A program made the translations under genes and the position numbers. Source: Spinacia oleracea (Eukaryota > Streptophyta > Magnoliopsida > Caryophyllales > Amaranthaceae). Taken from it: 64,000 nt of DNA. Within the stretch, counting starts at the first letter, position 1. Each line of letters opens with the position of its first letter. The DNA lies in the NCBI RefSeq assembly GCF_020520425.1, contig NC_079491.1, positions 98,673,152 through 98,737,151 on the forward strand. The letters are read 5' to 3'. The notes under the pieces are model-generated. The model did not search any database and was not told the DNA's origin. It saw only the letters and a list, made by a program, of their open reading frames with translations. Of the stretch, positions 8,765-51,984 are shown piece after piece.

Positions 8765-10073
8765 TGAAGGAAATAATGCCCTTGGTCCAAGTATGCATTC
8801 TATGTTAAGTCTAATAAATGCGGTTCAGTATTAATTAACAAGTTAATAATTCAGTGAGATCAAGTGAGATGAATGCCTAGCTAGAGGCCGCTTCAGTTCA
8901 AGTGGAATTAATGATATTAATCCACAGCTTACTCTTGACTGAACCCGTAGGGTCACACAAATAGTACGTAAACGGATCAAGTATTTAATGGCATTAAATA
9001 CTCCATCTATGGATATTCGGAATCGACGGATCTTGGTTTCAGTGGGAGCTGAGATCGTCACAGGCAAGAAATGAATACTCCGGAAACGATGATATTGCCG
9101 GAAACGGAAATATGGATCGTATCGGAAATATAAATATTATCCAAGTCGTAGATGTTGCCGGAAACGGAAACATGGTACGTATCGGAAAATATTATCGGAA
9201 ATGGAAATATTGCCGGAATCGGAAATATTGCCGGAAACGGAAATATTAAATATTTGTTCGAAACGGAAATTAATTCCGGAATCGGAAATATTAAATGTTG
9301 TTCGTATCGGAAATGAATTCCGGAATCGGGAATTTAATCGGAAGCGTATCGTACGAATTAGCATCGGACGAGGCCCGCTAGACGAAGGCCCAGCACGAAG
9401 CCAGGCCATCGCCCAGCGAGCCGCACGCAACGCACGCCTCGACCAGGCCCAGCGCAAGGCCAGGCCCAGCCAAGGGCGCGCGCGCGCGCACGCAGCACCG
9501 CACATGGGCTGTGCGCTTGTCGTGGGCCGCAAGGCCTGCGCGGGTGCACGGCTTGTGCGATGCGTATGCCGGAAATCCTAATTCTATTGGGATTCGTGCG
9601 AAGATTAAAATCCTAATCTTATTAGAATTGCTTTGTTATTTAGAGTCCTAATAAAGTTCTAATTAACAAATCCACATCCTAGTAGGATTACAATTCCTTT
9701 TCCATACCTCTATAAATAAGGGCCTAGGGGTCATTATTTATACATAAGTTTTCAAGTATTCAAAACTAGGATTTTTAAGCAGCAAAATCAGCCATAACTC
9801 TTGCCCATTTAGCCGAAAATAATAGTACCTTAAGGGCGATTCTAGTTGGTCAATCTTAAGGCGGATCCAGACGTGCTGTGGACTATCTACGGAGGGACGA
9901 CACTTGGAGTCCTAAAGACTTGTTCTTGTTCGGTTCGGGTGCAGCTAGGGAAGGCACGCAACAAAGAGTATGCATCTAAATTATGCTATATGATTATGTG
10001 TAAATAATATGTATTCCTGGCTTAATGGTTTTTTCCGCATGATTTATGAATTGTCATATCACTAGTAGAAAAA

Positions 10074-13190: not shown

Positions 13191-15130
13191 CTCTACATAG
13201 AAAACTCAAACTCCACATAGAAATAAAATCAGTTTAATAATTGTGTTTGCGAGGGGGTATTTCACAAGCAGGAGATGACTAGTTTGCATGATGTATAAGG
13301 CTAATTATAATTATGGTAAATAAAAAGCAATTTAAAGACATACCAAGTCATCTGTCAGCATGTCCACCTTTTTCACTTCCTTGGAAAAAAACCAACGGTG
13401 ACTGCATATTTTAAGCAAATTACAATTAGTACATGAAAGCTATTGACGGATAGACATACAACGACACTGTAAGTGCGAATAAAATTAGTTATTAGTGTCA
13501 CTGATGTATTCGCCTAGCTAAGGAGATGCAAGACGGACAGCAAACCACCATAGGGTTATAGGGGAAATAGCATAAAGTAGCAAGAATATAAGCACGCACT
13601 TACTGTTCATCTTTGTAAACACGGTAAAATTTCTCTACATGTTGCCGTTGACCAATAACTTGAGCGATTTATATACTAATCAGTTGAGTCGTCCAATAAA
13701 TCTCAACAAGAAGAGAATAAAGTGGAAAACCACTTTTGCATGAACCCTATAGAATCATCAACAATAAGCCAAGGAAAGGCTCATATGAGCGCAAAAGAGG
13801 GAATTACAAATTCACATAACAAGAGACCATAAGCTAACCTACTGAAACTATCATAAACACCTGATTATTTCACATCTCGACATGAAATGGATATTGGATT
13901 CAAGAAACTAGCTAGTAATACCATCAAACTAAAAGAGATCCTAAAAACAAAACAAACAAAACAGATTAATAGATCCCCTAACATTAATATATACTAAATC
14001 CTTCACAAATCCAAGGACGGAGTAGAGAATAATGTAGCTAACTTCTAACCTAACTTACTGCACATAGAATAAATCACTGTTTCAGATTAGCAATTATGGA
14101 ATACATAAATAAGTTACAGAGATAACTAATTATAGTACCAGTATATATTCTGTATACTGCAGACTCTGCAGACAAAAGATAAATTGATGTTTGTGATGCA
14201 GCAAGTCAGCAACTACCCCTTTCAATAGACAATAGTGTTTCCTTAAATATAGAAACAACACAAAAATGGAACTTAAATAACCATTAAAAATCCAAATCCT
14301 TGACACCAACCACCCCTCGCCTCAACCTTCCTCTTGATGAAAATAATTCATGCATGACCCCTTCCCCAAGACCCCTTCATTTGTCCATCATTCTAGCTAT
14401 TAATTTGTCGTCACTGCCACTTAAATGTTGTTGCAGGTAGATTGAACATAAAAAATGGCGAATGAATACAACCATCTAAATCAGAGTAATTACTTGGTCA
14501 TTGACGATGTACTGAACTTCCATAAGTACAGGTGATCGAAATTTTTTCACGATGATAAAAATTGTATTCTGCAGTCTGCTTGTTTCAAACATCTTAAGCG
14601 CATTCTTCTTCACTTAATTATCACTTCAGGAAGACAGGGAGATTGCATTGCTAACAACTGTTTTATGGCTCGGGAATATATCATTTCAAGTTACTAACAA
14701 TGAAAACCACGTAGAAGCTAACAACAGTTTTATGGCCCTGGAATGTATCATTTCAAGTTCTACCAATGATTTATTGCTTTGTAGTATGCATCATTTCATC
14801 CCGAGTATGAAATAATAAGTTATAATATTGAGTGTTCTACAGCTCCAATTGCTAATATGAGTTGCATATCTGTTCTAGTGTATTTTAATTTCACCAGCTT
14901 CTCATATGGAAGCTACTTGTCAATTTAGTTGTCAATTTTTTTCATAGCTGCCTTGTTTATAGCTTTAACTCAAATTTATGACTCATTGATTCATGACTCA
15001 ATTAGAGGAAAAAGAGAAAATTCTGAATACAATTAGAACGAATTGAACAACTAGCAAAAAAGAAAAAAAAAAATTGTACAAACCCTAATTCTGAAAACGA
15101 AAATCAAAAGGGGACAGGAAGAGAATTACT
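13191..15130. other. Unique-looking interior of the CACTA element
   Basis: AT-rich DNA of about 1.9 kb without a supported ORF or a repeat beyond a short CTCAAACTCCACATAGAAA duplication at its left edge. It may be intron sequence of the gene whose terminal exons appear to lie at 10675-10776 and 15299-15445 (inference). Confidence 0.4.
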
Positions 15131-32721: not shown

Positions 32722-33740
32722 TCATAAATCCATCTCAAGCAAGGACATAATAACACAACAACTAACAAAGTCCAACATACACCAAGAAAAAAGAAACGGG
32801 CTAAGTGCGGAACCTTGATGCACTCCAATCGTAATGGGATATTCTTCGGTCTTACCAATTACACTAGTTTTCACACTCTTGCTAACTCCCTCATACATGT
32901 CCTTGATGATATCAATATATTTCCTCGGGATTCCTTTCCTACTTAATACCCACCAAAGAATTTCCCTTGGTACCTTATCATACGCCTTCTCCAAATCAAT
33001 GAAAACCATATGTAAATCCTTCTTCTTATCTCGATAATTCTCCATTAGTTGCCTTATAAGATGAATGGCCTCCATAGTCGATCTCCCAAGAATAAATCCA
33101 AACTGGTGCTCCGAAATTTTCACATTTCTACTCAATCTTTGTTCATTAATCTGCACCCAAAGTTTTATAGTATGACTCATTAGTTTGATTCCTCGATAGT
33201 TGGCAAAATCTTGGACATCACCCTTATTCTTGTACAAGGGGATGATAGTACTTTTCCTCCACTCTAATGGCATCCTATTACTTTCCGAAATCTTGTTGAA
33301 AAGAGTTGTTAACCATCCAACCCCTCTCTCTCCCAAGCATCTCCAGACTTTGATAGGTATACCATCGGGCCCCACTATCCTCTTGCGTCCCATCTTTTTC
33401 AGTGCCATTTCGACTTATCTCTTTTGAATTATTCGCATAAAGTCTAGGCTAACCATATCCCGAGGGATATTTGTATCCCCATTATCGCGCCCTTGATCCC
33501 CGTTGAAAAGGTTATCAAAGTAGAACCTCCATCTATCCTTGATTTCCTTATCTCCCACCAAAACTTTTTGATCAACATGTTTCACACATTATTCCTCTCG
33601 ATGTCTCGCATCTTTCTATCTCTCATTCGAGCAAGTCTATAGATGTCCTTTTCCCCTTCTTTTGTATCCAATCTTGAGTAAAGATCCTGGTTCACCTTTA
33701 CTCTAACCTCTCTTACGGCCTTTGTAGGGGGTATTTTTTT
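32722..33740 (-). pseudogene. Non-LTR retrotransposon (RTE/L1-type LINE) reverse transcriptase fragment
   Basis: A minus-strand frame of 228 codons (33408-32722) contains reverse-transcriptase motifs: [20 protein letters not shown], the catalytic-Asp motif [15 protein letters not shown] and [13 protein letters not shown]. It breaks before the FADD/YADD catalytic motif. Upstream, 33408-33725 still reads with interruptions as LINE sequence (REVRVKVNQDLYSRLD, then KDIYRLARMRERK). The element is 5'-truncated and dead. The KNKGDVQ and [19 protein letters not shown] wording is closest to plant RTE-like elements. Confidence 0.88.
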
Positions 33741-33758
33741 GTACTTCCCGTTCTACAA

Positions 33759-33824
33759 GGGGGGGGGGGGGGGGCGCGGTTCTTTAGAGAACCATAGAAT
33801 TTTTGTACCTCGAAGGAGTCGCCA
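33759..33824 (-). other. Primer-binding-site motif and G16 homopolymer
   Basis: On the minus strand TGGCGACTCCTTCGAGG (33824-33808) resembles the primer site TGGCGACTCC(G/A)CTGGGGA seen at 45327 and 51310 (tRNA-Arg type in Ogre-like elements). A run of 16 G at 33759-33774 follows; its length is likely to be assembly-sensitive. Confidence 0.55.
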
Positions 33825-33832
33825 CCAAACAT

Positions 33833-35689
33833 TGTTTTTAGTCTAAATTGGAAATACCACAAGTGACTCTATTTTGGATAAGGCTTTGAATCCTCGAAAC
33901 GGATGGGTGAGATCCGGGCACGGGAACGAAATGCTTATTCCGCGAGCTTTAGAAATATTCAAGTACATTGGCACAACATTTTCGAAAATATACCCTAGAT
34001 TAGACTATATGGGTTTGAATTTAGAGCAAATAGAATCTCTACTTTGTATGGTGGTCACTTTGCTTTAAAGATTAATTTAAGGAACCTAAGGCCGGTTTTT
34101 CCAAGAAATTATCTTTGTTAAGCGTGATGTAACCTTTATATTTTGTTGTATTTAGCATGTGCGGTGATGAAAGCAATAAAGCAAATAAACCAACATCACA
34201 ATACTAAATAAAGTGCGGAATTAGTAAATACAAGACCCCCTAGAAATGGACTAGGGAGTAGGTCCACATTGCCTAGAAATGGACTAGGCAAGTAAAGATG
34301 CGGAATTGAAAGTGCGGAATTGAAATTGCGGTATTGCAATTGCGGTATTGAAAGTGCGATATTGAAAGGTGCGATATTGAAATTGCAATATTGAAAGGTG
34401 CATAATTGAAACTTGTACTTGGGCACATGAGATTCGAACGCCAAGCGGCTCCTTAAAAATAAGTGCGCCCGATACGAATTCAAAGCCAAAAATCTCAACT
34501 TGGGAGAGGTTGCTCAACCCAAATATCCTAGATTTTGCATATTAAACTTGAAATTGAAAGCTTGAATATTGAAATGTTTGAACTTGAAATGATTGAAATT
34601 TGAACTTGAAATGATTGAAATTAGAACTTGAAATGATCCTAGTTTAGAGAGGTAGTCATGAACAACTCTAAACATGGTGGGATCTTGAAATTTGAAAACT
34701 TGAACTTGTATATTGAAAAATGGAGTTTTGAATCTCAAAAGACTAAACCTTTAAATGTTAAAAGGTGTCATCTTTGATTACTCCATACTTGAAGGTGATT
34801 CTAGTTCAAAGAGATGATTGCAAGCAACTTTGAACATCCTTGAATCTTGAAAGTTTGCATTTTGTATTTTTGAAAAACATGTATGATTGTTGCAAGTGGT
34901 GTTTTTAATGAGGAAAACACCAACTTGATAATCATTTGAAATCAAAACAACATGGTTGATTGAAATGGGATTCGGATTTACCTATTTAGGTTTAGGCAAG
35001 AGCTCCCAATTGCTTAGAATTTAGGAATTTTTGTATGTGTTTTTGAGGGAGTTTTGAGTTATATTTTGAGGCGTAATGTCAGAATTACGACGTTGTATCG
35101 TTGTTCTCCTCCCCATGATGCTGAAAATGAGGAGTATTTATAGGAGGAATGGGTGCAAGGCGCCAGCACACGCCAGCGCAGTGCGCTGCTGACGTGGTTT
35201 GAATGCCGCCAAAGCAAGGACGCAGGCTCCGTCCTTGTTTCGTCTTGTAGTGTTGTACCTGTTGTACGAATTGTACTAGGTTTGGCGTTTTGTATATGCT
35301 TGGAGGTTAAGGCATTGTTTAGCGTCTAAAAACAAGCCTTTCTTGGGTTTTGAATTACGGTTTTACGGGACGGGATCCGGCATGCTCGGTTTTGTGGGTC
35401 GGCGCCCGAATTTGACTTGCCTTATATGATTTTGAGTGGAAAAGGCCTAATAAAACCAATGGGATGGTCTACTAGTTGAGATTGTATTTGGATTTTGAAA
35501 TTGGATTTTGAAAGTTGTATCTTGTACCGAGTTCCGGGAGGGGAACGGCCTCGGGGATTGGATTTTGGACCTTGAATTTTGGAGATATTCTTAGCAATTG
35601 GGATTTCCGCCTGGAGTTATTCCAATCACCTAGTAAGGATAATGGTATCGTCATCATCCCAAAGGGGAGACACAAATTAGGTGTCTACA
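33833..35689 (-). repeat. 3' LTR of element D
   Basis: It begins, on the minus strand, with TGTAGACACC right after the purine tract and ends in CA near 33833; the right boundary is firm, the left one is estimated. A TATA box (TATAAATA on minus) is at 35142-35135. The segment 34300-34640 is made of short tandem words (ATTGAAAGTGCG, ACTTGAAATGATTG). Confidence 0.7.
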
Positions 35690-35707
35690 GAAGCCCCCAC
35701 TTTGACT
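35690..35707 (-). other. Polypurine tract of element D
   Basis: On the minus strand AGTCAAAGTGGGGGCTTC directly precedes the LTR start TGTAGACACC. The same arrangement, AAAGTGGGGGCTAAC then TGTAGACACC, occurs at 49818-49833 in element C. Confidence 0.8.
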
Positions 35708-36231
35708 GAGCGTTCGGTTAGGAAAGCGCAAGTCAAAGTATTTCGAAAGGGGCGGAGAATGATAAAGATGTTTTGAAATCGAGACCATTCTTTGTACGCC
35801 GGTACCTGCATAAAACAGGCTTTAGAAAAAAAGATAAGAGTCTACCTCGATGGGGTGGTGATGACGCCGGTTTGTACTTGTACTTTTCCGCCTTCAGTTC
35901 AGGACGGAGCTTGGCATCGAAAATTTTGAATCTTGAATTTTTGAGTCTTGAATTTTTGAATTGGAATTTTTGAATTTGAATTCCCGGAGTTGATCCGTTG
36001 GGGATGTGCTTTGCTGGGGATGAGAGCTTTTTACCGGCCCTTAGATTTTTGAAATTTCGACTGACTTTCCCGGAGCTTGGGTCTGTTCGGAGTTGGACGC
36101 CTGAGTAGTTGTATTTTTTGGACTTTATATTCTTGAAATATTCATCTGTTTGTACTTGGAGATGCATGTGTATACCCGTATTCCCAACGGACCCAAGCTC
36201 CGTTGACACTTTGTATTCCACTTGATTTAGT

Positions 36232-38819
36232 ATGCCTCGTCACACTCGGAGGAAGCTCGCCGAATCGTCGGTGGTTCGAGCTGCTGAGGAGGACGCTTCG
36301 GATGATGAAGCGGCTGCAATAAACGTGCCAGATGGGGGTATGGTTCCCCGAGATGCGCCTGCTTTTGCTGGTACTGGTTGGACCCCTTCCGACCTGGTGT
36401 TTCGGCCGGATTGGCACTTGTCTCAGCGGCCTCGCGCTGGCATGGTGAGTCTTGTACTGTGTTTTGGGTTTGTATTTTGTATTTGTATAGGTTCTGAGCT
36501 AACTCGTTTACCTGTAGGCTGATGGAAAGCCGTTCCGTACTTTCTGGTCCTTGGCGGAGGTTCAGAGGGCCTTTAAAGCTCTTCGTGCTGATGAGGAGGC
36601 TATGGAGATTTGGTCGCAGACGGGTCTGGCTGACTTTTGGCGTGCCATGGGAGGTTCTTCGAGGAGAACGGGGATTAAACACCGGCTGTGGGCTTTGTTG
36701 GAGCGATGGTGGGATACCACCAACACTTTCCATATGGCATGGGGGGAGATCACCATTACCCCTTTCGAGTTTTCCATGATTATAGGTCTTCCTTTTTCTG
36801 AGAGGAATGTGACCTTTGATTCTGAGTTGACGTGGCGCTCGGCCGCTGCCAGGGACTTGCTCGACCCTGTTGCTGACTTGTCAGATGACGATTCCCACGC
36901 TTCCGTAACGGTGATCGTGGAGGCTATCTGCGGTGTGGGTGTATCCGCGGAGCAGAGGGTTAGGCTTTTCCTCCTAGCCTTGGTGAGTAGAGTGATGGCC
37001 CCGAGTAGGAACAGTCGGGTGCACATCAGATTCTTGTCCGTTCTGCGGAACTTGAGAGCTGTTTCGAGCTATAACTGGGGTAGCTTGGCATATAGCCACC
37101 TTTTGTATGAGATGAAGCGGGCCTCCCGGACTGCGCTGGGGAGTGACCCGAGCATGGCTGCTCTGTGGAGCGTGCTTCAGGTACTTGAGACTCCTTGTAC
37201 CTCGTACTTTGTATTTGTATGCTTGTATTTTGAACTTGACTGATGTTTTGCTTGCTTCTTGAAAGATTTGGATATATGAGCACTTTCCGACTTTGGCGTC
37301 GGATCGTACTAGGGATGCGGCTTACCCGTATGATGCCTCTTGGATAGGAGCGGTGCGCGTGAGTGTGTCTTTGGCGGCTTCTCGCAGAGCTTGGAGAGTT
37401 CTACCCGGTGATGAGGTAATCTTTTGTACTGGCTTGCTCTCTTGTATTTGTATTTGTACTGTTGCCTGATTTGCTTGTTTTGCAGGTGGTATGGCGTCCT
37501 TTTGCCAACGCGGCTGTACCTGCCTCGGCTGCTCGTGCCCATTTCCTGTCTGGGCGGCGGGTTTTGCTTTTAGGGGTGTACCTCCACATGTGGTATCTGG
37601 GGGAGCGAGTGTCCCTTCAACACCATTCGGGGGATAGGCTTGTCCCCAAGGACCTACTGGAGTCCATGCTGGCTCTAGATGAAGATCTTGCCCGGCTCTA
37701 TGCGGAGGCTAAAGGCGATGCAGTTTTCCGCTCTTGGAGGGAGTTTGTACACAAGAAGGGTAGCTATGATGACTTCTTGAGGAGGCTGGCCCCACCAGTA
37801 CGCTTCGTACCGCCGGTGAGCTTTTGAACCTTGTATCTTGTATTCTTGTATTCTTGTACTAGCTCTTGTATTGATTGCATGAATGTATGTAGGAGGAGGA
37901 GGTTGATCCTGAGGACATCCCCCATGCTGATAGGATCCTCCGCTATGAAAACTCGGACGGGGAAGAGGTGGTGGAGACCATCCCTTTGGCTTCTCCTCCG
38001 CACAGGAAATCATATGATGCTGTACCTAAGCATTACGCCGCTGTAAGTACTGTTGCATTTTTGAAACTGTTTGTAATCTTGTATTGGGAAATTGATCTTG
38101 GATTTTGTATGCAGGCGCCCCGGGCGAGGGTGCGTCGTTGGATGCTCTTGCTTGATTCTTGGAAGAGGCATTGTGCCAAGCTGACCCGGAAGCTTTCTGG
38201 CCGGAACAGAGAGGTGCATTACTTGATCTTGAAATTTGTATTCTGGAAATTTGAATTTGGATGTTGATTCTTGAAATTGTATTTTGTATAGGAGCGCCGT
38301 CGAAACCGTAGAGATTCCGTTGACAGAGAGCCTCAGGCGGAGGCGTCCTTGAGGCAGGAGGGACCGAGCTTGGAGCTGGGACAGGGGTCCGGTGCTGGTG
38401 CTCATCAGAGGCATTCTGATGCTGAGCGGGGAGCTTCCCCTTTTGTATATGTAGATCCCACCAGGCATTCATTTGGAGGTGCTGGCAGTTCACTGCCTTT
38501 TGTTTCTTCCCCTGGTTACTACTTCGGAGGAAGTGGTCCTCAGCCTTGGGGTGCAGATTCATGGGCTTACTATGCAGAGATGGAGAGGATGCGCCAGGCT
38601 CCGATGTTTGGGTCGTACCAATATATGCCGATGCCGCCGCCTTATCAGTATTCCTCTCCTCAACAGGGAGTTCATCCCTCCACTGGCACACTTCGTATCT
38701 CGGAGCAAGATCCTAGTACCCTTGGGATGGAGTTGGATCGGGATTTGGAGTGCCTTAGGAGGCGTAACAGGGACAAGGCACCAATGGTTGATATCACTGT
38801 TGATGAGGATTCAGACTGA
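36232..38819 (+). CDS. Plant mobile domain (PMD) protein, seven exons, carried antisense in element D
   Basis: Exons: 36232-36444, 36518-37180, 37266-37415, 37486-37815, 37893-38042, 38115-38213, 38292-38819. All six introns are GT-AG, 70-85 bp and phase 0; every exon length is a multiple of three and no stop occurs before 38817-38819, giving 710 residues. Exon 1 is acidic with a basic start. Exon 2 holds the PMD/aminotransferase-like signature (LADFWRAMGG, RWWDTTNTFHMAWGEITITP, FEFSMIIGLPF). Exon 7 is Gly/Pro/Ser/Tyr-rich and low-complexity. PMD proteins occur in host genes (MAIN/MAIL1 of Arabidopsis) and in transposons. Here the gene lies antisense between pol and the 3' LTR of a gypsy element, so it is probably a transposon passenger. 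Its unbroken frame is unusual beside the decayed integrase. Function unknown. Confidence 0.82.
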
Positions 38820-39450
38820 CCCTGCATGGCAGCGAGTTCCAGCTTGCCTGGGTTGATTTGGTATAGGCTGGATTGTATTGTATTTGTATGGGTTTGTATG
38901 GTTTGAAACTTGAATTTTGTATGGTTGAATTGGCTTGAAATTTTTGAAGATTGACTTTTGTATGTTTGAATGTTTGAACTTGCATGCGTTGTGTGTGCCT
39001 TGAAATCTTGTAGCTATATGCATGCATGATAAATTTGCAAAAAAATTTTGAAAAAATTTGCCCATTTTTCGGGTGTATATACCCACTATAAGCCCCCACT
39101 TTGACTGCGGTTTTTTGGTTAGGAAAAGCGCAGGTCAAAGTATATTCAACTTTTGCTTATGCATATGCAGACTCGACTTAGGACGCCGATCTAGGACTAG
39201 AATGCTTGAATTTTGAATAAAAATGACCCGAAATCTGCCCGAAGCGTTGATCCGGACTGCTTGAAATTGCGCGGCTTGCGGCTTTGGAAACTTGAATAAT
39301 GGTGGTTGTAGTCTGCTGTCCGAAACACTAAAGAGTGTGTACCCGGAGTCATAAAAGAGGACGGTGGCCTTGTCCTTTGGTGCAGGCTCCCTGCGCGTAG
39401 CGCGGGCTCGGCGCCTAGCGCCCGTGGGCTGTCGTGCAAGCCGACTCTTG
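38820..39450. other. Spacer between the two antisense genes, with a second purine tract
   Basis: 3' flank of the PMD gene, rich in TTGTATG/TTTGAA words. At 39089-39143 a block matches 35690-35740 (AAGCCCCCACTTTGACTG... AAAGCGCA(A/G)GTCAAAGTAT), that is, a second polypurine-type sequence on the minus strand without an obvious LTR start behind it. Confidence 0.6.
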
Positions 39451-39458
39451 TATAAATA
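39451..39458 (+). promoter_or_regulatory. TATA box of the DUF7745-like gene
   Basis: TATAAATA lies 89 bp upstream of the ATG at 39540, a normal plant spacing. This suggests the antisense gene had its own promoter and did not rely on the LTR. Confidence 0.55.
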
Positions 39459-39539
39459 GGGAGGTTGTCGGATCACTTCTTGCATCAATCCTTCCCTGCT
39501 ATCATTGCATATTGCTTCCTCACGAAAAGAAAAGAGAAT

Positions 39540-40910
39540 ATGGCTGTGTCCTTTGAAAGTGCCTTGAACTCGTGGCTTGGTTCGCTAGGCAAATTGGAGA
39601 AAAGGGAGCTTGATGGCATGCATCTTGGGGTGCTCGTCTCTTTCCGGTTTGTAAAATTGGATTTGCACTTCATTCTTGCTGCTCTGGAGGCTTGGGACCC
39701 GAATCATCATGTCTTCCACTTTGGAAATAATGAGGTATGTCCCCTCCCTGAGGAATTTAGTGCCATATTGGGGTGGCCCATGATGCTGGAGCCATGCATG
39801 CCCAGTGTTGAAGAACACTTTTTCTTGAGCTTTGAAAGATATTTGGGCTTGAAGCCCCCACTTTTGAGTGTATGGCAGAGGGGTGGACTTGTCCCTCTTT
39901 GTCACCTACTTTGCTGGGCTTGACGTTCCCAAAGTTTTCCGCCTGAGAGCCTTGAGTTTTTATATATTCGCTCGCTTCCTCTTTTCGAGGCAGGGGTTTG
40001 GCAATGGTGATGCCTCCCTAATAGAGATTGTAGAGCAGTTTGCTAGTGGTCGGGACCCAATGCCGCTCGTGGTGGGCGAAACATTGATGGACCTTGATAT
40101 GCTGAAGTCGGACCCCTCTTCTCTGCCGCCGGGAAGTCCGATATTACTCCAAGTAAGAATCTGGAGCCTTCTTGCATTTTGAATTTGTACTTGTATCTGA
40201 ATTTTGAATGTTGAATGTTGAAATGCATTTCTTGTATACTCCCCAAGGTTTGGCTTATGGAGAGGTTCATGTTGGTGGCACCACCGGAGAACATGGAGAG
40301 CTATAATGGAAAGGGATTCACTGTGCGACCCATGTTGTATGGCCGGCTTTCATTGGACGAGTGGAGATGCGCACTCTCTGGGATTGAATCTTGTATAAGG
40401 TGGGTAGTTCCTTGGTGGGGAATTGCTGCTATGAGATATGCCCCTGGTTCCACAGCTTTGAGGGTGCCAAGCCTCACAATGCTGGTCTTCTAATCGCCTG
40501 CTCGAGTGATGAGACAATATGGCTTGAAACAGGAGATCCCGGATTGTACTGAAGAGAACCCGAAACCTGTTGCGCTGAATGTAAATCGACTTGAAGTTTT
40601 GAGGCGGTATTGGGTTTCCAAACCATTCTTGAGTATCCAGTTCCCACCTGAGCCAGTTACTCTGTCTGCGGGGTACATTGTATGGATGAGAGGCCTAAGC
40701 TAGAGGGACATTTCTCTCTCCGGACCAGCTAGAGTCCGAGGTTCTAGAACTAGACGTCCTGTATCAACTGACTATGAGGAAGGGGACGGGAGTTTGGCCC
40801 ATCTGGTGCTTGACCGTTCGGAATCCAAAGGAGGCTCGTCATCCTCCCGTTTTGGAAGGCTTGCAAGTTCCTTCTCCCGCCGCTTGGGCAAGGGGAAGAT
40901 TGATGATTGA
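39540..40910 (+). pseudogene. DUF7745-like protein gene, frameshifted
   Basis: The N-terminus from ATG 39540 (ALNSWLGSLGKLEKRELDGM, then LDLHFILAALEAWDPNHHVF and PLPEEFSAILGWP) matches the DUF7745 family found in plant gypsy elements. The frame shifts by one base at about 39850-39890, continues (LFVTYFAGLDVPKVFRLRA) to a phase-0 donor at 40152/40153, and resumes after an acceptor at 40247 (VWLMERFMLVAPP). It hits a stop at about 40490 where the frame shifts again (MRQYGLKQEIPDC, RYWVSKPFLSIQFPPEPVTL), and the last piece ends near 40910. At least two frameshifts make it a pseudogene. Function of the family is unknown. Confidence 0.7.
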
Positions 40911-41375
40911 TTGCGGGAGGAGTCAGGGGATAGTACTCAAGGTGCCAAGACTCGAGAGCATAGTCGCCCGACCCTAGATCCTTGTAGGCTAAATGTGTTT
41001 GAAATTGTATTGGAAGGAATTGTGTTTAGAATGTGTTTGGAAGATGTGTTTAGAAAATGTGTTTAGGAAGTGAAAAGGCTTTTGAACTTTGCTTCACTTG
41101 ATCCTGACTTCGTATTTTGAAGTAGCTTTGAAGGCGTTAGGGCCAAATAAAAAGTTATTGTGTTAAATTCCGCTTGAATATGCTTTTCTTTGAATTGGCA
41201 CATTTGGAATAAAGACAACAAGGATTGGGTTTTGAAATTTGATTTGCTTTTTAGGATGTCCTTAATTGAGGAAATTTTGAATTTTTTTGTATTAAAGTGG
41301 TCGGGCCTCGAAATGAGGTTGCCTACGTGTCCCGTAAGGGAATCAGGCCGGACGTAGTTCTGACTACCTTACAGG
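40911..41375 (-). other. Non-coding part of element D downstream of pol
   Basis: Contains, on the minus strand, GGGACACGTAGGCAACC (41333-41317), a block also present as GGATACGTAGGCAATCC at 48824-48840 in element C. This suggests a shared post-pol motif in the two elements. No gene is supported. Confidence 0.55.
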
Positions 41376-41960
41376 ACTTGAATTTGAATTCTTGTACTTG
41401 AACATGGAACTTAGACATAGAACTTCTTGAGTTGATCGAGGTTGGTCAGAGATCTGAATTCTGTTCCGTCGATGTCTGTTAGTTCGACTGCTCCCCCGGA
41501 GAGGATCTTCTTGACAATGTATGGTCCTGCCCAGTTGGGTTTGAATTTTCCCCTTGGGTCCATGGTGCTTTTGCGAAGGGCTTTCAGGACAAGCTTCCTT
41601 GATGTTTCGGGTTCTGACCCTTTTGTTGAAATGTCTGGCCACTAGGTGCTAATAGACTTGTACGTGGTGAGCGGCTTGAAGCCGACGCTCATCGAGCATG
41701 ACTAGCTCGTCATATCTTGCTTATACCCATGCATCTTCTGGGATTTTGCTTTCGAGGACTATCCTTAGAGAAGGTATCTCCAGCTCGATAGGTTGTACTG
41801 CTTCCATTCCATAGACTAATGAGAACGGAGTTGCACCTGTTGAAGTGCGAATTGAAGTTCGATATCCCCACAATGCGAAATGAAGCTTCTGAGGCCAGTC
41901 CTTGTAATTGGTAGTCTTTTTCATGATGATGGCTGACAGGCTTAATCGCACTCCTATCAA
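41376..41960 (-). pseudogene. Gypsy integrase C-terminal remnant
   Basis: The minus-strand reading NYKDWPQKLHFALWGYRTS, STGATPFSLVYGMEAVQPIE and LRIVLESKIPEDAWV is the end of a Ty3/gypsy integrase core. It continues with ARYDELVMLDERRLQAAHHV, VARHFNKRVRTRNIKE and GKFKPNWAGPYIVKKILSGG to its C-terminal tail. Two in-frame stops and a frameshift interrupt it. The sequence breaks at about 41934 where element F is inserted; bases 41934-41960 of the open frame are not integrase. Confidence 0.88.
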
Positions 41961-43320
41961 AGATAAACCTAACGTTCACCAACTAAAAATATAGGAAGGG
42001 AAGCAGGGATCATATCCACAGGGAAACAACGTTCTTCTACTTTAATAGACTAATCTAGACTACTGGTAACAAGAATTGGATTGGTTTGTATATTGAACTA
42101 AAGCAAATAATCAAATCGGAAAATAACAATATTAAAGGAATCTAGGGCAGCGTTTCACCATAAATGCAGACCGGGATTGGACAACGGACAATAACAATCA
42201 ATTAACAATCATAACTAGGAAAACATGCATCGCTCGAATCTTATGAATTCCTTAGGATAGAACAACTAGCGGGCTCTCGCTACGTACTAGAAATAATTCC
42301 TATCTAATAGCCACAGACCAAAAACATCAGATTTGTACCTCTCGGCGCATAATCTAAGGTTAATCAAACTCAAATCAAAATAGTCCGGCCGAACAGAATT
42401 GACGAGAAATAATAATAAGCTATAGAAATTATAATCAATCAATCAAATATCATGTCCACATATAATCCCAATCATGCATTCATGGATCCCCTTAAACCCT
42501 AGAAATTAAACTACTCACTCATGGTAACGAATAACAACGCAATTAACATAATGGAAAACATGATTAAAGCAATAAAACGAATTAAAGTAAGAAGCAATAC
42601 CGAATTGAAGAACAATGAAATAATAAAGCTTGAATCTTTGATTAAAACTAAAACTAAGTGTTTTGAGAAATAGAGAGAACTAAAAACAAACTAAGTAATG
42701 GAAACTAGAATAATAGATGTTCTCTAAAATAATAAAAGCTAGTTTATATAGTTTGCCTAAAATAAAGCTAAAAATCGGAAAAGGAAACACGCGAACAGCT
42801 GCAGAGGTTGGCGTCGCTTCGCCCGATCGGGCGATGTGCTAGACAGTCGGCCCGATCGGGCCAAATTCCGCCCGATCGGGCGGTTTGCGAAGAGTCAATA
42901 TCTGCCTTCTGATGGGTGCCCGATCCGGACCGGGCGAACTGTGCCCGATCGAGCGCGTGTAGATGGCTTCAATTCTCTTTTAATTCCGCCCGATGGTCGC
43001 ATTTCGCCTTCAGCTCACAGGGCGATTTGCAATCCTCAATATCCTTCGCCCATATCACCGAGTCTAACTCTCGGGGCTCAACCATAAGCATCTAAGGCTC
43101 CCGGAAGTCGACGATAAAGGTCCCGAACTTCCTCGGGCTTGTGTAGTGGCCTAAATCAACATGAAACGAGTCTAAAAAGACCGATTCCTCAAAATCAAAC
43201 CTGAAACTCAAGGCACACTCAATAACACATATTAGTACTAAAAACGGCTCCTAAGAGCTCATTTGACGCATAAAAGTACTAAGGGACGGGGGTGAAACAC
43301 TATATAAAACACACATATCA
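41934..43320 (-). repeat. 3' LTR of LTR retrotransposon F
   Basis: On the minus strand the LTR starts TGATATGTGTG at 43320, immediately after the tract TTGGGGGAGTT, and ends CCTGTCA at 41934. A TATA box (TATATAAA on minus) lies at 42750-42743. The U3 region carries three 14-bp GC palindromes (42820-42882). The left junction falls inside the integrase remnant of D. Left flanking pentamer ATGGC (41929-41933) is the expected target duplication, unconfirmed because the other end is outside. Confidence 0.7.
42820..42882. promoter_or_regulatory. Three GC palindromes in the LTR of F
   Basis: CGCCCGATCGGGCG (42820-42833), GGCCCGATCGGGCC (42849-42862) and CGCCCGATCGGGCG (42869-42882) are perfect palindromes sharing the core CCCGATCGGG. 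Weaker relatives lie at about 42918 and 42943. They sit upstream of the TATA box (minus strand), in U3. Confidence 0.7.
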
Positions 43321-43849: not shown

Positions 43850-45325
43850 TGTAGACACCTACTTTTGTCCCCATTCCCGAAAGGGAAGGTTCGATGATGA
43901 GAACATAAATCTCCACTTGACAAAGCATCTACTATAAAATAACGAATCTCAATCACCCTTTTCATTTCACCCGAAACCTGCTATTTATAGAAACCTGCTG
44001 TTTATGGAAACCTGCTAAAAATAGTAACTGCCGTAATGGGTAGTTGTTGAAAACGGCAAGTCATAAAAGATAGAAACCTGTCAGAATTAGGTGTTGCACT
44101 CCAACATAAATCCTAAATGAGATAGAAATTACAAGAGGGATCCTATTCCTAATATGATTCGAAAAAAGAGTTACGTATTAATTAAAATCCTAACGAGCCT
44201 AGAGTTCGTAACGGCATCGGACGCATCCCGTCATAAAATTAATACGCACTAAAAGACTCGATTAAGTCTCATGCACTCCGGATTCTAAGAGTCTGAATCT
44301 GACAAAGAAACGGCCCAGACCCTATTTTCAACGCCTGGCTCTGGGCGCCGAAATCTTCTGTGCCCAGCCCTGGGCGCTGAAATTACCTGGGACGTGTTCT
44401 TTCCTAATTCCTCGTGGATTAGAGTTCTACAATTCTATCTTTCCACGAACTCTTTTCTATAAATATAGCCCCAAGTTCGACGTGAAAAAAGACACAACAC
44501 ACAATTTATATTCTGAGTATTGACTCCAACCCCTAAGCCTAAGCCTCACGCTGCGAAATTGATCACGCGTTATGTCGCAATCGATCCAAAAATCGAACAG
44601 GACGTATCCTGTCCCGTAACTTGAGATTCGTTAAATAAAAGGAGAAATAGCAAAGTCAAAGTGGTTAGTTTTCTGAGAACCGTGACGCGCGCACCTCTCA
44701 AGGGTGCGTCGTAATGTGTCCCCTTCGCATGATTTAATCGCTTTCCTCGCCCTTTTATGAATTGTTAAACTAATTAAATCTGATTGTTCTATCACGCCTA
44801 ATAAAGATAATATTTTTGGGAAATTGGATTATCATGCTAGGTCCCTTAATACAATCTAAATCAGATAATCGCGCTCGATCTAGTATTATATGTTGCATAT
44901 TGCTAAAATCAACTCAGATTAGTTTAATAGCTAACGCATGTCCCTTCAATTATTTATGCTGAGCTAGTAAGGATATCCTGCCTCTGGAGTTATCGAAGAG
45001 CGAGTACTCCTCTCGGTAGTTACAGTCCCCCGAACCCTCAATCTCTACCTTGCGGGTGTATGTTGAGAAATCCCCACACCAGGGATCACAAGGGAACCTA
45101 CGGCCGTCGTGGTCAAACATAATTGCACTCCCTTTATGTCACGATAACCGGGTTTTGTCAGTTTTTCTCATTGTCGTTAAAAGCTGAATGGCGACTCCTA
45201 CATTACTAGTTAATTGGGTGTAAACTCACAGGAAATCCAATTACACTTGATTTGACAAAAAGAAGCGTCACACCCACGAGGGATGAGGTCACGCATTAGC
45301 CTCGTGCTTTTTCGACCTCCTCACA
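43850..45325 (+). repeat. First LTR of element C
   Basis: TGTAGACACC...TCACA; TATA box 44458-44465; GC motif 44324-44392 with GGGCGCCGAAA. Confidence 0.85.
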
Positions 45326-45326
45326 G

Positions 45327-45344
45327 TGGCGACTCCGCTGGGGA
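45327..45344 (+). other. tRNA-Arg-type primer-binding site
   Basis: TGGCGACTCCGCTGGGGA starts two bases after the LTR CA end. The copy at 51310-51327 has A for G at the eleventh base. This matches the site described for Ogre-type elements. Confidence 0.75.
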
Positions 45345-47445
45345 TAGTGAAGGAAATACTCGTGCTCGTAGGTAATCAAAATAGCCGAAGGGTAAAACGA
45401 TCCTACCCCGCGTTTATTTCCCCATCAAGTTTGGACGACCTGAAAATCAGCATATTAATGTGAACGGACAGAACCGCATAACGAATCTTGGCTCCCTTGG
45501 ATGTTTCATCTCGGGAGTTGGGACTAAGGATACCCATCGCCAACCGGGGGGTGCATACGCTTCAAATGTTGTCCACTCAGCACTTTCTCTAGTAGTACAC
45601 CCGTCCCAAACCCAATCGCTCGCCCACTAGGTCCCTCTCATTGGTGCATGCCCCCTTAGCTTACATCGTGATTGGCCTCTTGGGCGAAATTCGTCTGTTG
45701 AAGGCACTACCTCGACCGGGGCATGTGTTGGATCTGCGATAGAAGCGGTACCAAGCCAGGCGCAAATACTACCCATAGAAGCCTATCATAAACTACATGA
45801 CATATTATTATTGCCTCATGATGTAATGTTAGTTATGCGTAGCGAAATGTATGATTGTGTGTGACAAACAATGTTAGAAAACCAACGACCTTAAAAATTT
45901 CCCAAACATTCATAAACCAATTGGCCAAAGAGTTATACCAGAATACGTGTTCCGCAAACCCGAACGATCGCCACAAAAATAAGCAACGCTCGGGATGGCC
46001 TGTAACGAATCCCACAAACGCTGCACAACGCGTAAAGGACGTTATAAGGCAAGAACGCAAAATTAAAGTCGCAAAAACAAAAGTATACGCGAACAGAAAA
46101 CGAGAACCTGCCAGGGACGCATTTTCAACGCCCCTGGCTGGGCGCCAAAATTTCTCACGCCCTACGCTGGGCGCTGAAGTTGCTGCCTGGCCTTTGGTCA
46201 GGCGCAGCAGCCTCGGTGCCCGCGCATGAAGAAAATACGTAGCAAAAAACCTTTCGTAAAAATTGCTGCAAGGGCGTATGAAAAGGCACTCGATTCTAAA
46301 AGCGACTTGTAAAAAATAAAATAACTCTTTGTGTCGTTGTTAGGCCTCCTATGACGACAATGTTCGGCTCCAAAACCGAGCACGCTAATTGAAATAACCT
46401 CGAATGTCACATGGGCAAAGTATTTAAAAAATAATGTTCAAATGAAGTTTTGAAGGAAAAATAATGTTCGAATAATAATAAAACAAATATCCGAGTCTAG
46501 ACTACGCTATGCCGAAGTACAATCTAAATCCTAAGTCTTAGTTGTCTTATCCATAGAATCGGTCCTAATGCTTGGTGTCGTTCTGCAAGTTAAAAGGTTA
46601 AACCATATTGAGTCTCCCTTCCTAACATTTAAATCAATAAGCACCCATATGTAATTGTCATCCCTTGCTAAGAATCTACGGCCTCAATACTCTCTCTCTC
46701 ACCAATAAAAAGAATATATTATAGTATTTGCAAAATGGAAACAGTCACATTCTAAAAATCATTCCCCCATAGTCGCACAACCCCCAAAAGTGAACCTAAG
46801 GTGTCAATACCATTAGCAAAATTTAATGGCCTCAAGGCTTATGATCACATTGGGTCACGACTATCATAGTCCTCTCGAGCCACTCGCTCCTTGAAATACT
46901 CCTAAGTACGGACTAAAAGATTTTCCATGAATGCAACATGACGAACCATGAAAACACCCAAATCGGCATGCAATAAGGCTACCATCGGGGTAAAGCAATA
47001 CACACTAAGAGGGAAACCGCACTAATGATTCTAGTCTCGCAAAAAAGAAAAATTCGATCTCCCCAACTAACTACTTTGCCAACATTAAGCAAAATGGCGC
47101 ATGACAAATGAACACCCAAGGGTTAAAATCTAAAGTGTCAACCAATGAAAGTTATGGTCCAATTAGCCTAAGTCTAAAAGTTTCTTGGTCAAGTATTATA
47201 GGCTTACGCCACGTCATTATTTTGAGTCTAGGTCACCTCCTTGTATTCATACACGGGTTATAATCCGAAAGATTAATGAAAGTTCGAGTCTAAATCACAA
47301 CTTCCAATTAAATCCCGAAAACTGAAAAAAATTATTTTCGATGTAATTCTTTCGTTAAATTTCAATAAGGTAAAAACAACATTTTGAATCTACAATATTT
47401 GCACATTTTAAGAAACGACTAAATACGCTTGCAAAGTAAGACAAT

Positions 47446-47583
47446 TTAAAGGTCCACCCTAGGCCTACTAAAATTAAAGGTCCACCCTAGGCCTACTAAA
47501 ATTAAAGGTCCACCCTAGGCCTACTAAAATTAAAGGTCCACCCTAGGCCTACTAAAATTAAAGGTCCACTATAGGCCTACCAA
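47446..47583. repeat. 28-bp tandem repeat, five copies
   Basis: The unit TTAAAGGTCCACCCTAGGCC plus TACTAAAA starts at about 47446, 47474, 47502, 47530 and 47558. The first four are identical and the last varies. Confidence 0.95.
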
Positions 47584-49832
47584 ACGAGGCTCACTCAGTC
47601 TCGCCTCGTGACTCAAAGACCACAACCATCTACCTTTTAGCCCAAATAAAAAAAAAATTTGAAGGATTTATGTTGGGGAGAAATCCCATGCAAAAAGAAA
47701 AAAATAGAAAGAGAAAAGGGAGAGCGAAAAGAGAGAGCCATGATATACTTAAAGAGAGAGAGAGAAAAGGGAGAGCGAAAAGAGCGAGCCATGAAATACT
47801 TGGCCCGTACCTCCCAAAGTGCAAAATATCCCCAAGTAAACGAAGAAAAGAATTGAGTCAACCAATCCAAATCATGCCACAAAAACTACATAAAGTTCTA
47901 CGACGTCTACCCTTTCCAGTCCTTATGTTCTTAGACGCCTTCGCTCTGGGGCGCCTTTTCAGCTTATTTAACCCATCCATGTTCTCATTGCCATAACCCA
48001 AGAAACCATTACCTCGACTCTTGTTCTTGAACTTGTTATCAACTGCAAACCACGTACGGCCATTGACACGTGCGTCATACCCATTATTTCCAAAACCTGC
48101 TCTTACATCACCATTAGCATAATGACCATATAACTTGTTTGAATACATCCTGTTGATATACCCTTGAGCCGTCCCCATGCTATTCATTGGCCTTGCTTGA
48201 TGTAATCCTCGTGCTTGACTAATACCTATACAACTTATCCTATCTCATTCAACCCATCTTTCAAAACCGTCTTGAGTCACGAATAAAAAGAGACAAATGA
48301 AAAGTACATTCTACGCTCAACGTAAAAATAAAAAGAAAAAAAAATGTGAATAATAAAAAAGAAACCTTGCAAAGCGCCTCTAAAGTTAGTCTAAAAAAAA
48401 GAAGCATTTAGCGCACCAAAAAAGATCCGCCCAGAAATAATTTTCAGCGCCCACAGCTGGGCGCCGAAAACTTTGACGCCCCAGCCTGGGCGTTGAAACT
48501 CTCTGCCTGCCAAGTTTTGTTCAGAAGTGCTCGTCATTTTTATCCGCACATGCACGGAAAATAACGAACACTTGGAGGGGTACAACACGTATTCAGATAT
48601 ACGTACCACCAAAAAAAAATACATGTACTCAAAAAAATATAAAATAATTTTTTGGCTTACGGTAAGGCAGCAGATTAAAATAATAATAAATTTCACTTAT
48701 TCCACCGTTTCAAATAATATGTTTCCACCTCAGAACGTACTTGTTTAAAATCGGCATTCTAAGAAACCATTTTCTGGCTAAGAACTACGCAAGACCTGAT
48801 TCCAAATTAAATTTATTTAAGGCGGATACGTAGGCAATCCATGATTCGGTCCAACCAATTTGCAAAAATGTTAAAGCCTATAGAATAACAAGAATAAGAA
48901 ATAGAGTCCCTTATTGAAATTTAAATTACTTGCAACCCACGTCGAAAGAAAAATTTAAGTCAAAGGAAGAATCCAAGTCATCAAGATGCCAAAACGAGCA
49001 CACATCGAAAAATAATAAGGGCACGTACCCTTGCCAGAAGGAGCACTCACACTCCTAGGCACTTAGCCAAGACTCAAAGGATCGCTTTGCCTCAATTGAA
49101 TGGGGGCTAGCGCAAGCGTCCATGACCTCTAAAGTACTCGACTTGACCCTCCCTAAAGCGAACTAACTCACTTAAAGACTTTCTTTCACCACTAGACATA
49201 GTCGTTCGCTTAAAGACCTTCTTTCACCACTAGACACAGTCATAATCGCCAACAAGTAATAAAGGCAGTAAGCTTGCAATAAAGAGGATTGTCCTACGGC
49301 ATCGCCCCATCGTTCCTTCGAACTCAGGACACCCGTTCATGGTAATTCAAATGCTTGCGAATCTCCGTTGAAAAGAAATCAGACATTGTCAATAGGACTT
49401 GGCACGTAACCAAGGCTCACCCTACTCAGACATATGACACGGGCATCTAAAATCAAAATCTAAAAGCATCATCAATGGGAAAACATAATAGCAACTGGGG
49501 GCTAAAAAAATTGAAATGAAAGAGTTAGGGAAAGAACTAAGTATACCTTGACCTTTTGTGCAGACATACACCAAGTAAATCTAAGTCAATTTGAAAACGG
49601 TTTATATTCCCGCAATTCTGGAAAAGATGGCCCTAAAAGCCTAAAACATATGTGTAGACACGTGAGGGATATGTCGACATTTCAAGTGATGACCCTTAAG
49701 TCAAATGTTATCACTCGGGGGCTCGTGAGACCCTCGCAAAACAGGTCACATACACCATGGCTTGTGTGACGCACTCCGTCTAATACTTTGACCATCGTCT
49801 TACTCCAAGACTCAGTCAAAGTGGGGGCTAAC

Positions 49833-51308
49833 TGTAGACACCTACTTTTGTCCCCATTCCCGAAAGGGAAAGGTTCGATGATGAAAGCATAAATCTCCAC
49901 TTGACAACGCATCTCCTATAAAATAAACGAATCTCAAATCCCCTTTTCATTTCACCCGAAACCTGATATTTATAGAAAACTGCTATTTATGGAAACCTGC
50001 TAAAAATAGTAACTGCCGTAAAAGGTAGCTTCTAAAAGTGGAAAATCATAAAGGATAGAAACCTGTCAGAATTAGGTGTTGCATTCCATCATAAATCCTA
50101 AATGAGATAGAAAACTGCGAGAATCCTATTCCTAATATGATTCGGAAATAAGAGTTACGTATTAATTAAAATCCTAACGAGCCTAGAGTTCGTAACGGGC
50201 CCAGACGCATCCCGTCGCAAGGTTAATACGCACTAAAAGACTCGATTAAGTCTCAAACGCTACGGATTTCAGGAATCCGAATCTGACTAAAAAAACAGCC
50301 CAGACCCTATTTTCAACGCCTGGCTCTGGGCGCCGAAATCTTCGGCGCCCAGGCCTGGGCGCTGAAAATACCTGGGTACGTGTTTTTTCCTAATTCTTTG
50401 TGGATTAGAACTCTGCAATTCTATCTTTCCACGAACTCTTACCTATAAATACAGCCCCAAATTCGACGTGAAAAGGACACACAACACACAATTATATTCT
50501 GAGTATTGACTCCAACCCTTAGCCTAAGCCTCACGCTGTGAAACTGTTCACGCGTTCTGTCGCAATCGATCCATAAACCGAACAGAACGTATCCTGTCGC
50601 ATAATTGAGATTCGTTAAATAAAAAGGAGAAATAGCAAAGTCAAAGTGGTTAGTTTTCTGAGAACCGTGACGCACCTCTCAAGGGTGCGTCGTAATGTGT
50701 CCCTTTTCGATGATTTAACTGCTTTCCTCGCCCTTTTTATGAACTGTTAAACTAACTAAATCTTATTGTTCTATCACGCCTAACAAATATAATATTTTTG
50801 GGAAATCGGATTATCATGCTAGGTCCCTTAATACTATTTAAATCAGATAATCACGATCGATCTAGTATTATATGTTGCATATTGCTAAAATCAACTCAGA
50901 TTAGTTTAATAGTTAACGCATGTCCCTTCAATTATTTATGCAGAGCTAGTAAGGATATCCTGCCTCTGGAGTTATCGACGAGCGAAGTACTCCTCTCGGT
51001 AGTTACAGTCCCCCGAACCCTCAATCTCTACCTTGCGGGTGTATATTGAGAGATCCCCACACCAGGGATCACAAGGGAACCTACGGCCGTCGTGGTCCAA
51101 CATAATTGCACTCCCTTTATGTCACGATAACCGGGTTTTGTCAGTTTTTCTCATTGTTGTTAAAAAATGAATGGCGACTCCTATATTACTAGTCAATTGG
51201 GTGTATACTCACAGGAAATCCAATTACACTTGATTGAATAAAAAGAATCGTCACACCCACGAGGGACGAGGTCACGCATTAGCCTCGTGCTTTTTCGACC
51301 CCCTCACA
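49833..51308 (+). repeat. Second LTR of element C
   Basis: Same length as the first LTR. TATA box 50444-50451; GC motif 50308-50371, containing a perfect 10-bp stem with 3-nt loop (50328-50350). Preceded by a polypurine tract and followed by a primer site, so it faces internal sequence on both sides. Confidence 0.85.
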
Positions 51309-51984
51309 GTGGCGACTCCACTGGGGATAGTGAAGGAAATACTCGTGCTTGTAGGTAATCAAAATAGCCGAAGGGTGAAACGATCCTACCCCGCGTTTAT
51401 TTCCCCATCAAGTTGGGACGACCTGAAAATCAGCATATTAATGTCAACGGGCAGAACCGCATAACGAATCTCGGCTCCCTCGGGAATGGGGACTAAGGAT
51501 ACCTTTTTCCGCCAATAGGGGGGTGCATACGCCGCGCATGTTTCCCACTCGGTACTTGTGCAGGTAGTACACCTATCCCGAACCCAATCGCTCGCTCATT
51601 AGGTCCCTCTCGCCTGCATGCCCCCTTGGCTTGCACTTGCGGGTTGGCCTCTTGGGCGAAATTCGTTTGTTGAAGACACTACCTCGACCGGGGCATGTGT
51701 TGGATCTACGATAGAAGCGGTACCATGCCAGGCGCAAATAAACTACCCATAGAAGCCTATCATAAACTACGTGACATATTTAATTTTCAAATCCATGTTT
51801 GTAATGTAATTATGTGTAGCGAAATACGTGATTGTGTGTGACAAACTATCCTAGAAAATCAACGACCTTAAAAATTACCCAAACATTCATAGACTAATTT
51901 GCCAAAAGAGTTATACCGAAACACGTGTTCCGCAAACCCGAATGATCGCCACAAAAATAAGCGACGCTCGGGATGGCCTGTAAC

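What the first reader, a model, noticed from the sequence alone, without database searches (positions are those of the whole stretch)
36232..38819. Intact seven-exon plant-mobile-domain gene riding antisense in a gypsy element
Seen: seven exons all keep frame, six GT-AG introns are phase 0 and 70-85 bp, and 710 codons are open. The gene lies on the opposite strand to an integrase remnant, purine tract and LTR of the same element. Known: Tat-lineage elements can carry extra ORFs, and PMD domains occur in transposons. Inference: introns survive retrotransposition because the element's RNA is antisense to the gene. An intact frame beside a decayed integrase suggests recent selection or a recent arrival, so this may be a passenger gene that serves the element or the host.
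Basis: partly seen in the sequence, partly recalled or inferred. Interest (0 to 1): 0.8.

Follow-up and report, generated by a model that had tools for sequence, protein, structure and literature searches.

The report
Intron-bearing antisense gene in spinach retrotransposon
A repeated jumping element in the spinach genome carries, on its opposite strand, a seven-exon plant-mobile-domain gene that keeps its introns from copy to copy and shows signs of natural selection on its protein, so it looks like one of the element's own accessory genes rather than a stray host gene.

Summary
The gene is not unique. In five further copies sampled on five chromosomes the integrase is on the opposite strand (5 of 5) and gene 1 is at the same place (4 of 5 full length, 1 of 5 last exon only). 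The four full-length copies retain all six introns (47 of 48 splice dinucleotides). dN/dS is 0.25-0.29 in 9 of 10 pairs, near integrase (0.22 pooled) and below every one of 800 neutral simulations for the four window pairs. So it is most likely a selected accessory gene of an Ogre/Tat-like Ty3/gypsy family, beside a second, decayed antisense PMD gene. A sister family shows an antisense PMD gene with one predicted intron and dN/dS 0.27. The intact frame beside a dead integrase needs no host selection: gene 1 is broken in the other four full-length copies, while 3 of 5 integrase segments are open. PMD in Ogre elements and antisense ORFs in Tat elements are published; intron-rich antisense coding under purifying selection is the new part. 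No RNA evidence was available; molecular function is inference.

The parts
36232..38819 (+). Gene 1: seven-exon plant-mobile-domain gene, 710 codons, intact; exons 36232-36444, 36518-37180, 37266-37415, 37486-37815, 37893-38042, 38115-38213, 38292-38819
   Evidence: Splicing; PF10536 3.4e-31; junctions in annotated proteins; introns in 4 of 4 full-length copies
36445..36517 (+). Intron 1, 73 nt, phase 0
   Evidence: copies
37181..37265 (+). Intron 2, 85 nt, phase 0 (SVLQ|IW)
   Evidence: copies (acceptor altered in 1 of 4)
37416..37485 (+). Intron 3, 70 nt, phase 0
   Evidence: copies
37816..37892 (+). Intron 4, 77 nt, phase 0 (89-120 nt in the four other copies)
   Evidence: copies
38043..38114 (+). 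Intron 5, 72 nt, phase 0
   Evidence: copies
38214..38291 (+). Intron 6, 78 nt, phase 0
   Evidence: copies
39540..40910 (+). Gene 2: second PMD-type gene, two exons (about 39540-40152 and 40248-40910), decayed here: one frameshift and two premature stops
   Evidence: tblastn with spinach P0033, 80-87% identity; P0033 passes the PF10536 cut-off; 196 exon matches in the genome
39451..39458 (+). TATAAATA about 80 nt upstream of the gene 2 start; possible promoter element, untested
   Evidence: sequence match only
41414..41921 (-). Integrase C-terminal remnant of the element, with two stops and a frame change; interrupted at about 41985
   Evidence: 87-100% identity per piece to integrase of five other copies
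33723..35689 (-). Probable 3' LTR (TGTAGACACC at 35689 reading down; other end at 33723 less certain); no partner LTR found in the window
   Evidence: window sequence only
35690..35741 (-). Purine tract region next to the LTR
   Evidence: sequence; repeated at 39090-39143 (85%)

Best explanation
Gene 1 is a standing accessory gene of a high-copy, Ogre/Tat-like Ty3/gypsy retrotransposon family of spinach. It lies between pol and the 3' LTR, antisense to pol, next to a second antisense PMD gene. Because the element's genomic RNA is complementary to it, its introns are not splice sites in that RNA and are copied unchanged at each transposition (inferred from the copies). The protein would come from a separate antisense transcript that is spliced (inferred; no RNA seen). 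Purifying selection acted while the family spread (shown by copies); after insertion single copies decay, and this copy happens to keep gene 1 while integrase and gene 2 are broken (inferred). The molecular role is a guess: a nuclear PMD protein acting on transcription or silencing of the element, by analogy with the host PMD proteins MAIN and MAIL1; I put about 0.3 on that particular role.
For: Gene model and PMD domain; junctions in annotated spinach proteins; spinach relatives on several chromosomes (31 of 32 hits); the gene 1-gene 2 order also in spinach model P0006; gene 2 with 196 exon matches, 98 of 9557 candidates scored; integrase on the opposite strand in 5 of 5 sampled copies, gene 1 full length in 4 of 5; introns in 4 of 4, 47 of 48 splice dinucleotides, dN/dS 0.25-0.29 in 9 of 10 pairs, integrase 0.22 pooled; below all 200 neutral simulations for each of four pairs; a sister family with antisense PMD, one predicted intron, dN/dS 0.27 pooled and RT, two RNase H-type domains and integrase in its pol.
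Against: No transcript evidence. Only 5 copies sampled, chosen for gene 2 matches without stops. One of the 5 has only the last exon of gene 1. All four other full-length copies have a broken gene 1: 1-4 frameshifting indels, 0-3 stops. The closest pair has dN/dS 0.52. The neutral expectation of the estimator is below 1 (0.62-0.81), so the constraint is weaker than the raw 0.25 suggests. Upstream of the start codon only 29 nt match, in 2 of 5 copies, and the fetched stretches stop short of the LTR, so a shared promoter and the LTR position in the copies were not shown. RT and the doubled RNase H were not examined in this element itself.
Confidence: 0.82

Rival explanations
1. Gene 1 is a host PMD gene captured once by an element and carried as a neutral passenger.
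For: Host PMD genes exist and capture by MULE transposons is reported (PMC5418596, passages). The other four full-length copies are broken.
Against: dN/dS about 0.25 across diverged copies, below 800 of 800 neutral simulations; splice sites kept in 47 of 48 cases; the same arrangement in a sister family.
Confidence: 0.04
2. This one copy has been recruited by the host, and selection after insertion keeps gene 1 open while integrase and gene 2 decay.
For: 0 lesions in 2133 nt of gene 1 against 6 in 1788 nt of gene 2 plus integrase; about 0.009 if lesions fell evenly.
Against: The finding was picked because the frame is intact. In other copies the pattern is reversed: gene 1 broken in 4 of 4 full-length copies, integrase segment without stops in 3 of 5. 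No expression or population data.
Confidence: 0.06
3. The antisense transcript, not the protein, is what matters: it forms double-stranded RNA with the genomic RNA and regulates or silences the element.
For: Proposed for antisense ORFs in PMC7264820 (parts 1-2 of 3 read); 175 phased-siRNA loci at PMD genes reported in tea (PMC10673657, passages).
Against: A role of the RNA alone does not predict low dN/dS, conserved frames and conserved splice sites. Both roles could hold together.
Confidence: 0.08

Closest known systems
PMD-bearing extra ORFs of Ogre elements (PMC6317226, section 13 and passages; Steinbauerova 2011 known only through citations, not held)
   Same: Plant mobile domain reported in extra ORFs of 57% of Ogre elements; Tat-type pol in the sister family here
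   Different: That survey took uninterrupted ORFs of at least 250 codons, so a seven-exon gene would not be scored as such; the passages read do not give the orientation of the PMD ORFs, introns in them, or selection
Retand antisense ORFs with the TRP28 domain (PMC11963269, parts 1-3 of 5 read)
   Same: Antisense ORF between pol and 3' LTR, present across clusters, suggested regulatory role
   Different: Domain is TRP28 (PF04195), not PMD; ORFs of at least 600 bp were counted; introns not discussed in the parts read
Grande gene23 and other antisense extra ORFs (review PMC7264820, parts 1-2 of 3 read)
   Same: Accessory gene in the 3' internal region, antisense, with its own promoter and a nuclear protein in Grande
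   Different: No PMD domain named; the review itself asks for a look at antisense and spliced transcripts
Gypsy-borne PMD-A clades and host MAIN/MAIL1 (PMC5418596, passages; PMC7156037, passages)
   Same: PMD proteins encoded by gypsy elements and related to host silencing proteins
   Different: Clade of this protein not tested; the passages read do not treat orientation or introns of the gypsy genes
Antisense spliced genes of deltaretroviruses such as HBZ (mentioned in PMC11963269; splicing recalled)
   Same: Accessory gene on the opposite strand of a retroelement
   Different: Unrelated protein and a different class of element; analogy only

Membership tests
Plant mobile domain protein (PF10536) | Pfam PMD match above the curated cut-off | tested here: met
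   109.1 bits against 34.9 for gene 1; gene 2 relative P0033 38.7 bits
Ogre/Tat lineage of Ty3/gypsy | Integrase of Tat-type pol | tested here: inconclusive
   Integrase pieces 49% and 34% identical to a spinach family whose pol has RT, two RNase H-type domains and integrase; no tree of lineages was made
Ogre/Tat lineage of Ty3/gypsy | Second RNase H between RNase H and integrase in its own pol | not tested
   That part of pol is not in the window element, and the copies were fetched only at integrase; seen in the sister family
Ogre/Tat lineage of Ty3/gypsy | Extra ORF between pol and 3' LTR | tested here: met
   Window order integrase, gene 2, gene 1, probable LTR; gene 1, gene 2 and opposite-strand integrase in 4 of 5 copies; LTR side not fetched in the copies
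LTR retrotransposon insertion | Two matching LTRs and a target-site duplication | tested here: inconclusive
   One probable LTR; self-comparison of 33700-42100 with the window found no partner
Retand antisense TRP28 ORF | PF04195 domain | tested here: not met
   No PF04195 match in gene 1 at E up to 1 or P0033 at E up to 10
MULE-associated PMD | Mutator transposase fused with or next to PMD | tested here: not met
   No transposase match in gene 1; neighbour in five copies is integrase
PMD-A clade of Ikeda 2017 | Position in the PMD tree | not tested
   No reference sequences of the clades at hand

The most novel reading that the evidence does not exclude
Tat-type retrotransposons of spinach keep intron-rich antisense genes on purpose: the introns act as a strand and transcript check, so that only a nuclear, antisense, correctly spliced RNA can make the PMD protein while the genomic RNA carries the introns unread. 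The element thereby maintains a two-gene PMD module over many transposition cycles that counters the host MAIN/MAIL1 silencing pathway, and intron-bearing accessory genes are a general class overlooked because surveys look for uninterrupted ORFs.
Probability: 0.25. Interest if true: 0.75.

Novelty: new variant of a known kind. Interest (0 to 1): 0.55.

Why it matters
Genes that LTR retrotransposons depend on are normally expected to lose introns, because the element passes through RNA. Here a seven-exon gene persists across dispersed copies under purifying selection, apparently because it is antisense to that RNA. Surveys based on uninterrupted ORFs would miss or split such genes, so the coding repertoire of Tat elements may be underestimated. 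Host PMD proteins (MAIN, MAIL1) silence transposons, and which came first, the gypsy or the host PMD, is described as open (PMC5418596, passages); intron positions of element-borne PMD genes give a new character for that question, and a counter-silencing role becomes testable.

Tried and rejected
AlphaFold model of the homologue P0002 from 14 sequences had mean pLDDT 36 and was dropped; no fold search was run. The PDB sequence search gave only 2 weak matches (E 0.48 and 0.62). Pfam on read-through frames did not detect the window integrase. Chance assembly of the frame was rejected by recurring junctions and copies. Recent arrival or host rescue as the cause of the intact frame was weakened by the other copies. 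LTR dating was not possible: no second LTR in the window. The upstream regions of the two genes share a 54-nt purine-tract-like stretch at 85% and otherwise short weak matches. A different, abundant 310-codon PMD family was looked at and set aside as MULE-like on one weak, below-cut-off hit (PF03108, 17.3 bits against 25). In one search one sequence of the second-exon comparison was read in the wrong frame and the integrase comparison included unaligned ends; both were redone and only the redone values are used. The five copies were chosen because both gene 2 exon matches had no stop and lay on the plus strand, so they lean towards less decayed copies. In one search the second control (per-exon values) is noisy for short exons and is not used.

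Full report
What is there. Splicing the plus strand at the stated junctions gives seven exons and a 710-codon frame with six GT-AG introns of 70-85 nt, all phase 0. The protein has a plant mobile domain (PF10536, E=3.4e-31; DUF1985 below its cut-off). Exons are 56% GC, introns 34%.

Where it is. The window is G000:C5:98673152-98737151 of an 894 Mb assembly with 242 contigs. Lengths of five of its large contigs equal those given for contigs with Spinacia oleracea proteins, so the genome is spinach by inference; the sixth, C5, differs slightly. The first protein search returned 9 hits, 8 from spinach and 1 from Vaccinium darrowii at 32% identity; a profile search returned 32, 31 from spinach. 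Both scored only the 7997 candidates sharing most words.

Is the gene model real. Among the 34 fetched proteins (33 spinach; P0033 and P0034 are gene 2 relatives), the script counted junctions 1-6 in 7, 15, 14, 17, 15 and 12; one of the 7 joins exon 1 to exon 4, so junction 1 has 6. These are annotated models, some labelled isoforms, and not independent of gene prediction. I saw no RNA evidence.

The second gene. After 720 nt follows another plus-strand gene, 39540-40910, with one intron (about 40153-40247). Its spinach relative P0033 passes the PMD cut-off. In the window it has one frameshift and two premature stops. Its intron (LLQ|VW) and intron 2 of gene 1 (SVLQ|IW) lie at the same motif and phase, judged by eye. 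Spinach model P0006 contains gene 1 sequence followed by gene 2 sequence. A genome search with P0033 gave 196 exon matches with 98 of 9557 candidates scored; the listed ones are spread over C1-C6 and a few small contigs, many as two exons some tens of nucleotides apart (list cut).

The host element. Minus-strand integrase pieces lie at 41414-41921 with two stops and a frame change. Pfam missed them. Two of the three match, at 49% and 34%, a spinach family; one pol frame of that kind in the same stretch has RT, RNase H, RVT_3 and integrase core in this order, the order that PMC6317226 gives for Ogre and Retand. Beyond about 41985 the element is interrupted (by eye). The probable 3' LTR is 33723-35689; no partner was found in the window.

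Other copies. Using gene 2 positions I fetched five copies on C6, C5, C4, C3 and C2. Integrase lies on the opposite strand in 5 of 5, 87-100% identical per piece. Gene 1 is colinear along its length in 4 of 5; the fifth has only a 267-nt match to the last exon. In the 4 full-length copies all six introns are present (67-120 nt), with 47 of 48 splice dinucleotides and the ATG in 4 of 4; each has also 1-4 frameshifting indels and 0-3 stops. So introns survive transposition, and copies decay afterwards. Upstream of the start codon only 29 nt match, in 2 of 5 copies; the fetched stretches end before the LTR.

Selection. Pairwise dN/dS (Nei-Gojobori) among the window and 4 copies is 0.25-0.29 in 9 of 10 pairs and 0.52 in the closest pair. 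Integrase gives 0.22 pooled over 10 pairs (range 0.12-0.50), with no stop in 3 of 5 segments, 1 and 2 stops in the others. Because transition bias lowers this estimator, I simulated neutral change with the spectrum of fourfold sites, 200 runs for each of the four window pairs: means 0.62-0.81, lowest run 0.48-0.61, observed 0.25-0.28; the runs hold 8-15 stops on average, the copies 0-3. Intron divergence (0.089-0.195) is close to exon divergence (0.092-0.206) and below synonymous divergence; I do not explain this, and cytosine deamination in GC-rich exons is a guess.

A sister family. Of 15 matches of one PMD type (103-111 bits; 14 of 15 without stops) I examined 9. Integrase is on the opposite strand in 8 of 9 within the stretch held. 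A 687-codon PMD frame is followed, across a predicted 74-75 nt phase-0 GT-AG intron, by a frame of about 269 codons. The intron is visible in 6 of 9; in L032 the pattern did not match, and L036 and L037 are diverged. PMD dN/dS is 0.27 pooled over 21 pairs of 7 copies; printed pairs range from 0.24 to 0.37 or 0.43, one close pair 0.86 on four changes, 0.15-0.16 against L036 and 0.42-0.45 against L037. The second exon gives 0.32 (15 pairs) and integrase 0.22 (21 pairs). Copies over 99% identical share the intron, so it came through recent transposition.

Intact gene beside a dead integrase. Gene 1 has 0 lesions in 2133 nt, gene 2 plus integrase 6 in 1788 nt; about 0.009 if lesions fell evenly. 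The finding was picked for intactness and other copies show the reverse, so I do not read this as host selection, although I cannot exclude it.

What is known. PMD in 57% of Ogre elements (PMC6317226, section 13 and passages); PMD-A clades exclusively in gypsy elements, and silencing by MAIN/MAIL1 (PMC5418596, passages); [quoted passage not shown] the class of antisense extra ORFs with Grande gene23 (PMC7264820, parts 1-2 of 3); PMD the most frequent atypical domain in a screen of plant LTR elements (PMC9289625, passages); Ogre/Tat the most abundant Gypsy lineage in spinach (PMC6337768, passages). Nine searches listed no title or abstract that I recognised as a multi-exon antisense PMD gene in an LTR element. 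The library lacks most subscription papers, among them Steinbauerova 2011, so this does not show absence.

Mechanism. Shown: antisense placement, intron persistence, purifying selection, two-gene arrangement. Inferred: own promoter, splicing, nuclear action on silencing or transcription. I put 0.82 on an accessory gene of the element and about 0.3 on that molecular role.

Noticed in passing
window 35691-35741 and 39090-39143: The purine-tract stretch next to the LTR is repeated inside the element upstream of gene 2 (85% identity); a related stretch lies at 49782-49855 on the other strand (78%). A second priming site or a trace of how gene 1 was added are possible.
   Followed up: partly
window 43850-51310: Plus-strand LTR element with LTR starts at 43850 and 49833 (parts 94-95% identical); a primer-site-like TGGCGACTCC follows both LTRs (45327 and 51310), as in a tandem of elements sharing an LTR.
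   Followed up: no
window 4015-7896: Uninterrupted 1294-codon copia-type gag-pol frame, with repeats 99% identical at 1-300 and 8909-9208 on either side.
   Followed up: no
window 10853-13196: Tandem repeats at multiples of about 161 nt, possibly a satellite array.
   Followed up: no
window 32725-33414: Minus-strand reverse transcriptase of RVT_1 type, LINE-like by eye, close to the probable LTR.
   Followed up: no
L001, L004-L008 (G000:C4, 141.7-143.7 Mb): 13 of the 126 PMD matches fall within about 2 Mb of one chromosome, several with frames of over 600 codons.
   Followed up: no
L011-L015: An abundant PMD family with 310-codon frames and near-identical scores has a weak MuDR transposase hit on the same strand, so it is perhaps MULE-borne.
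   Followed up: partly
proteins P0008 and P0030: Spinach models named as an MFS transporter and a histone RNA hairpin-binding protein contain exons of this element's gene 1; element exons appear to have been drawn into host gene models.
   Followed up: no
gene 1, window 36232-38819 against L039-L042: Introns are less diverged between copies than synonymous sites of the exons.
   Followed up: no
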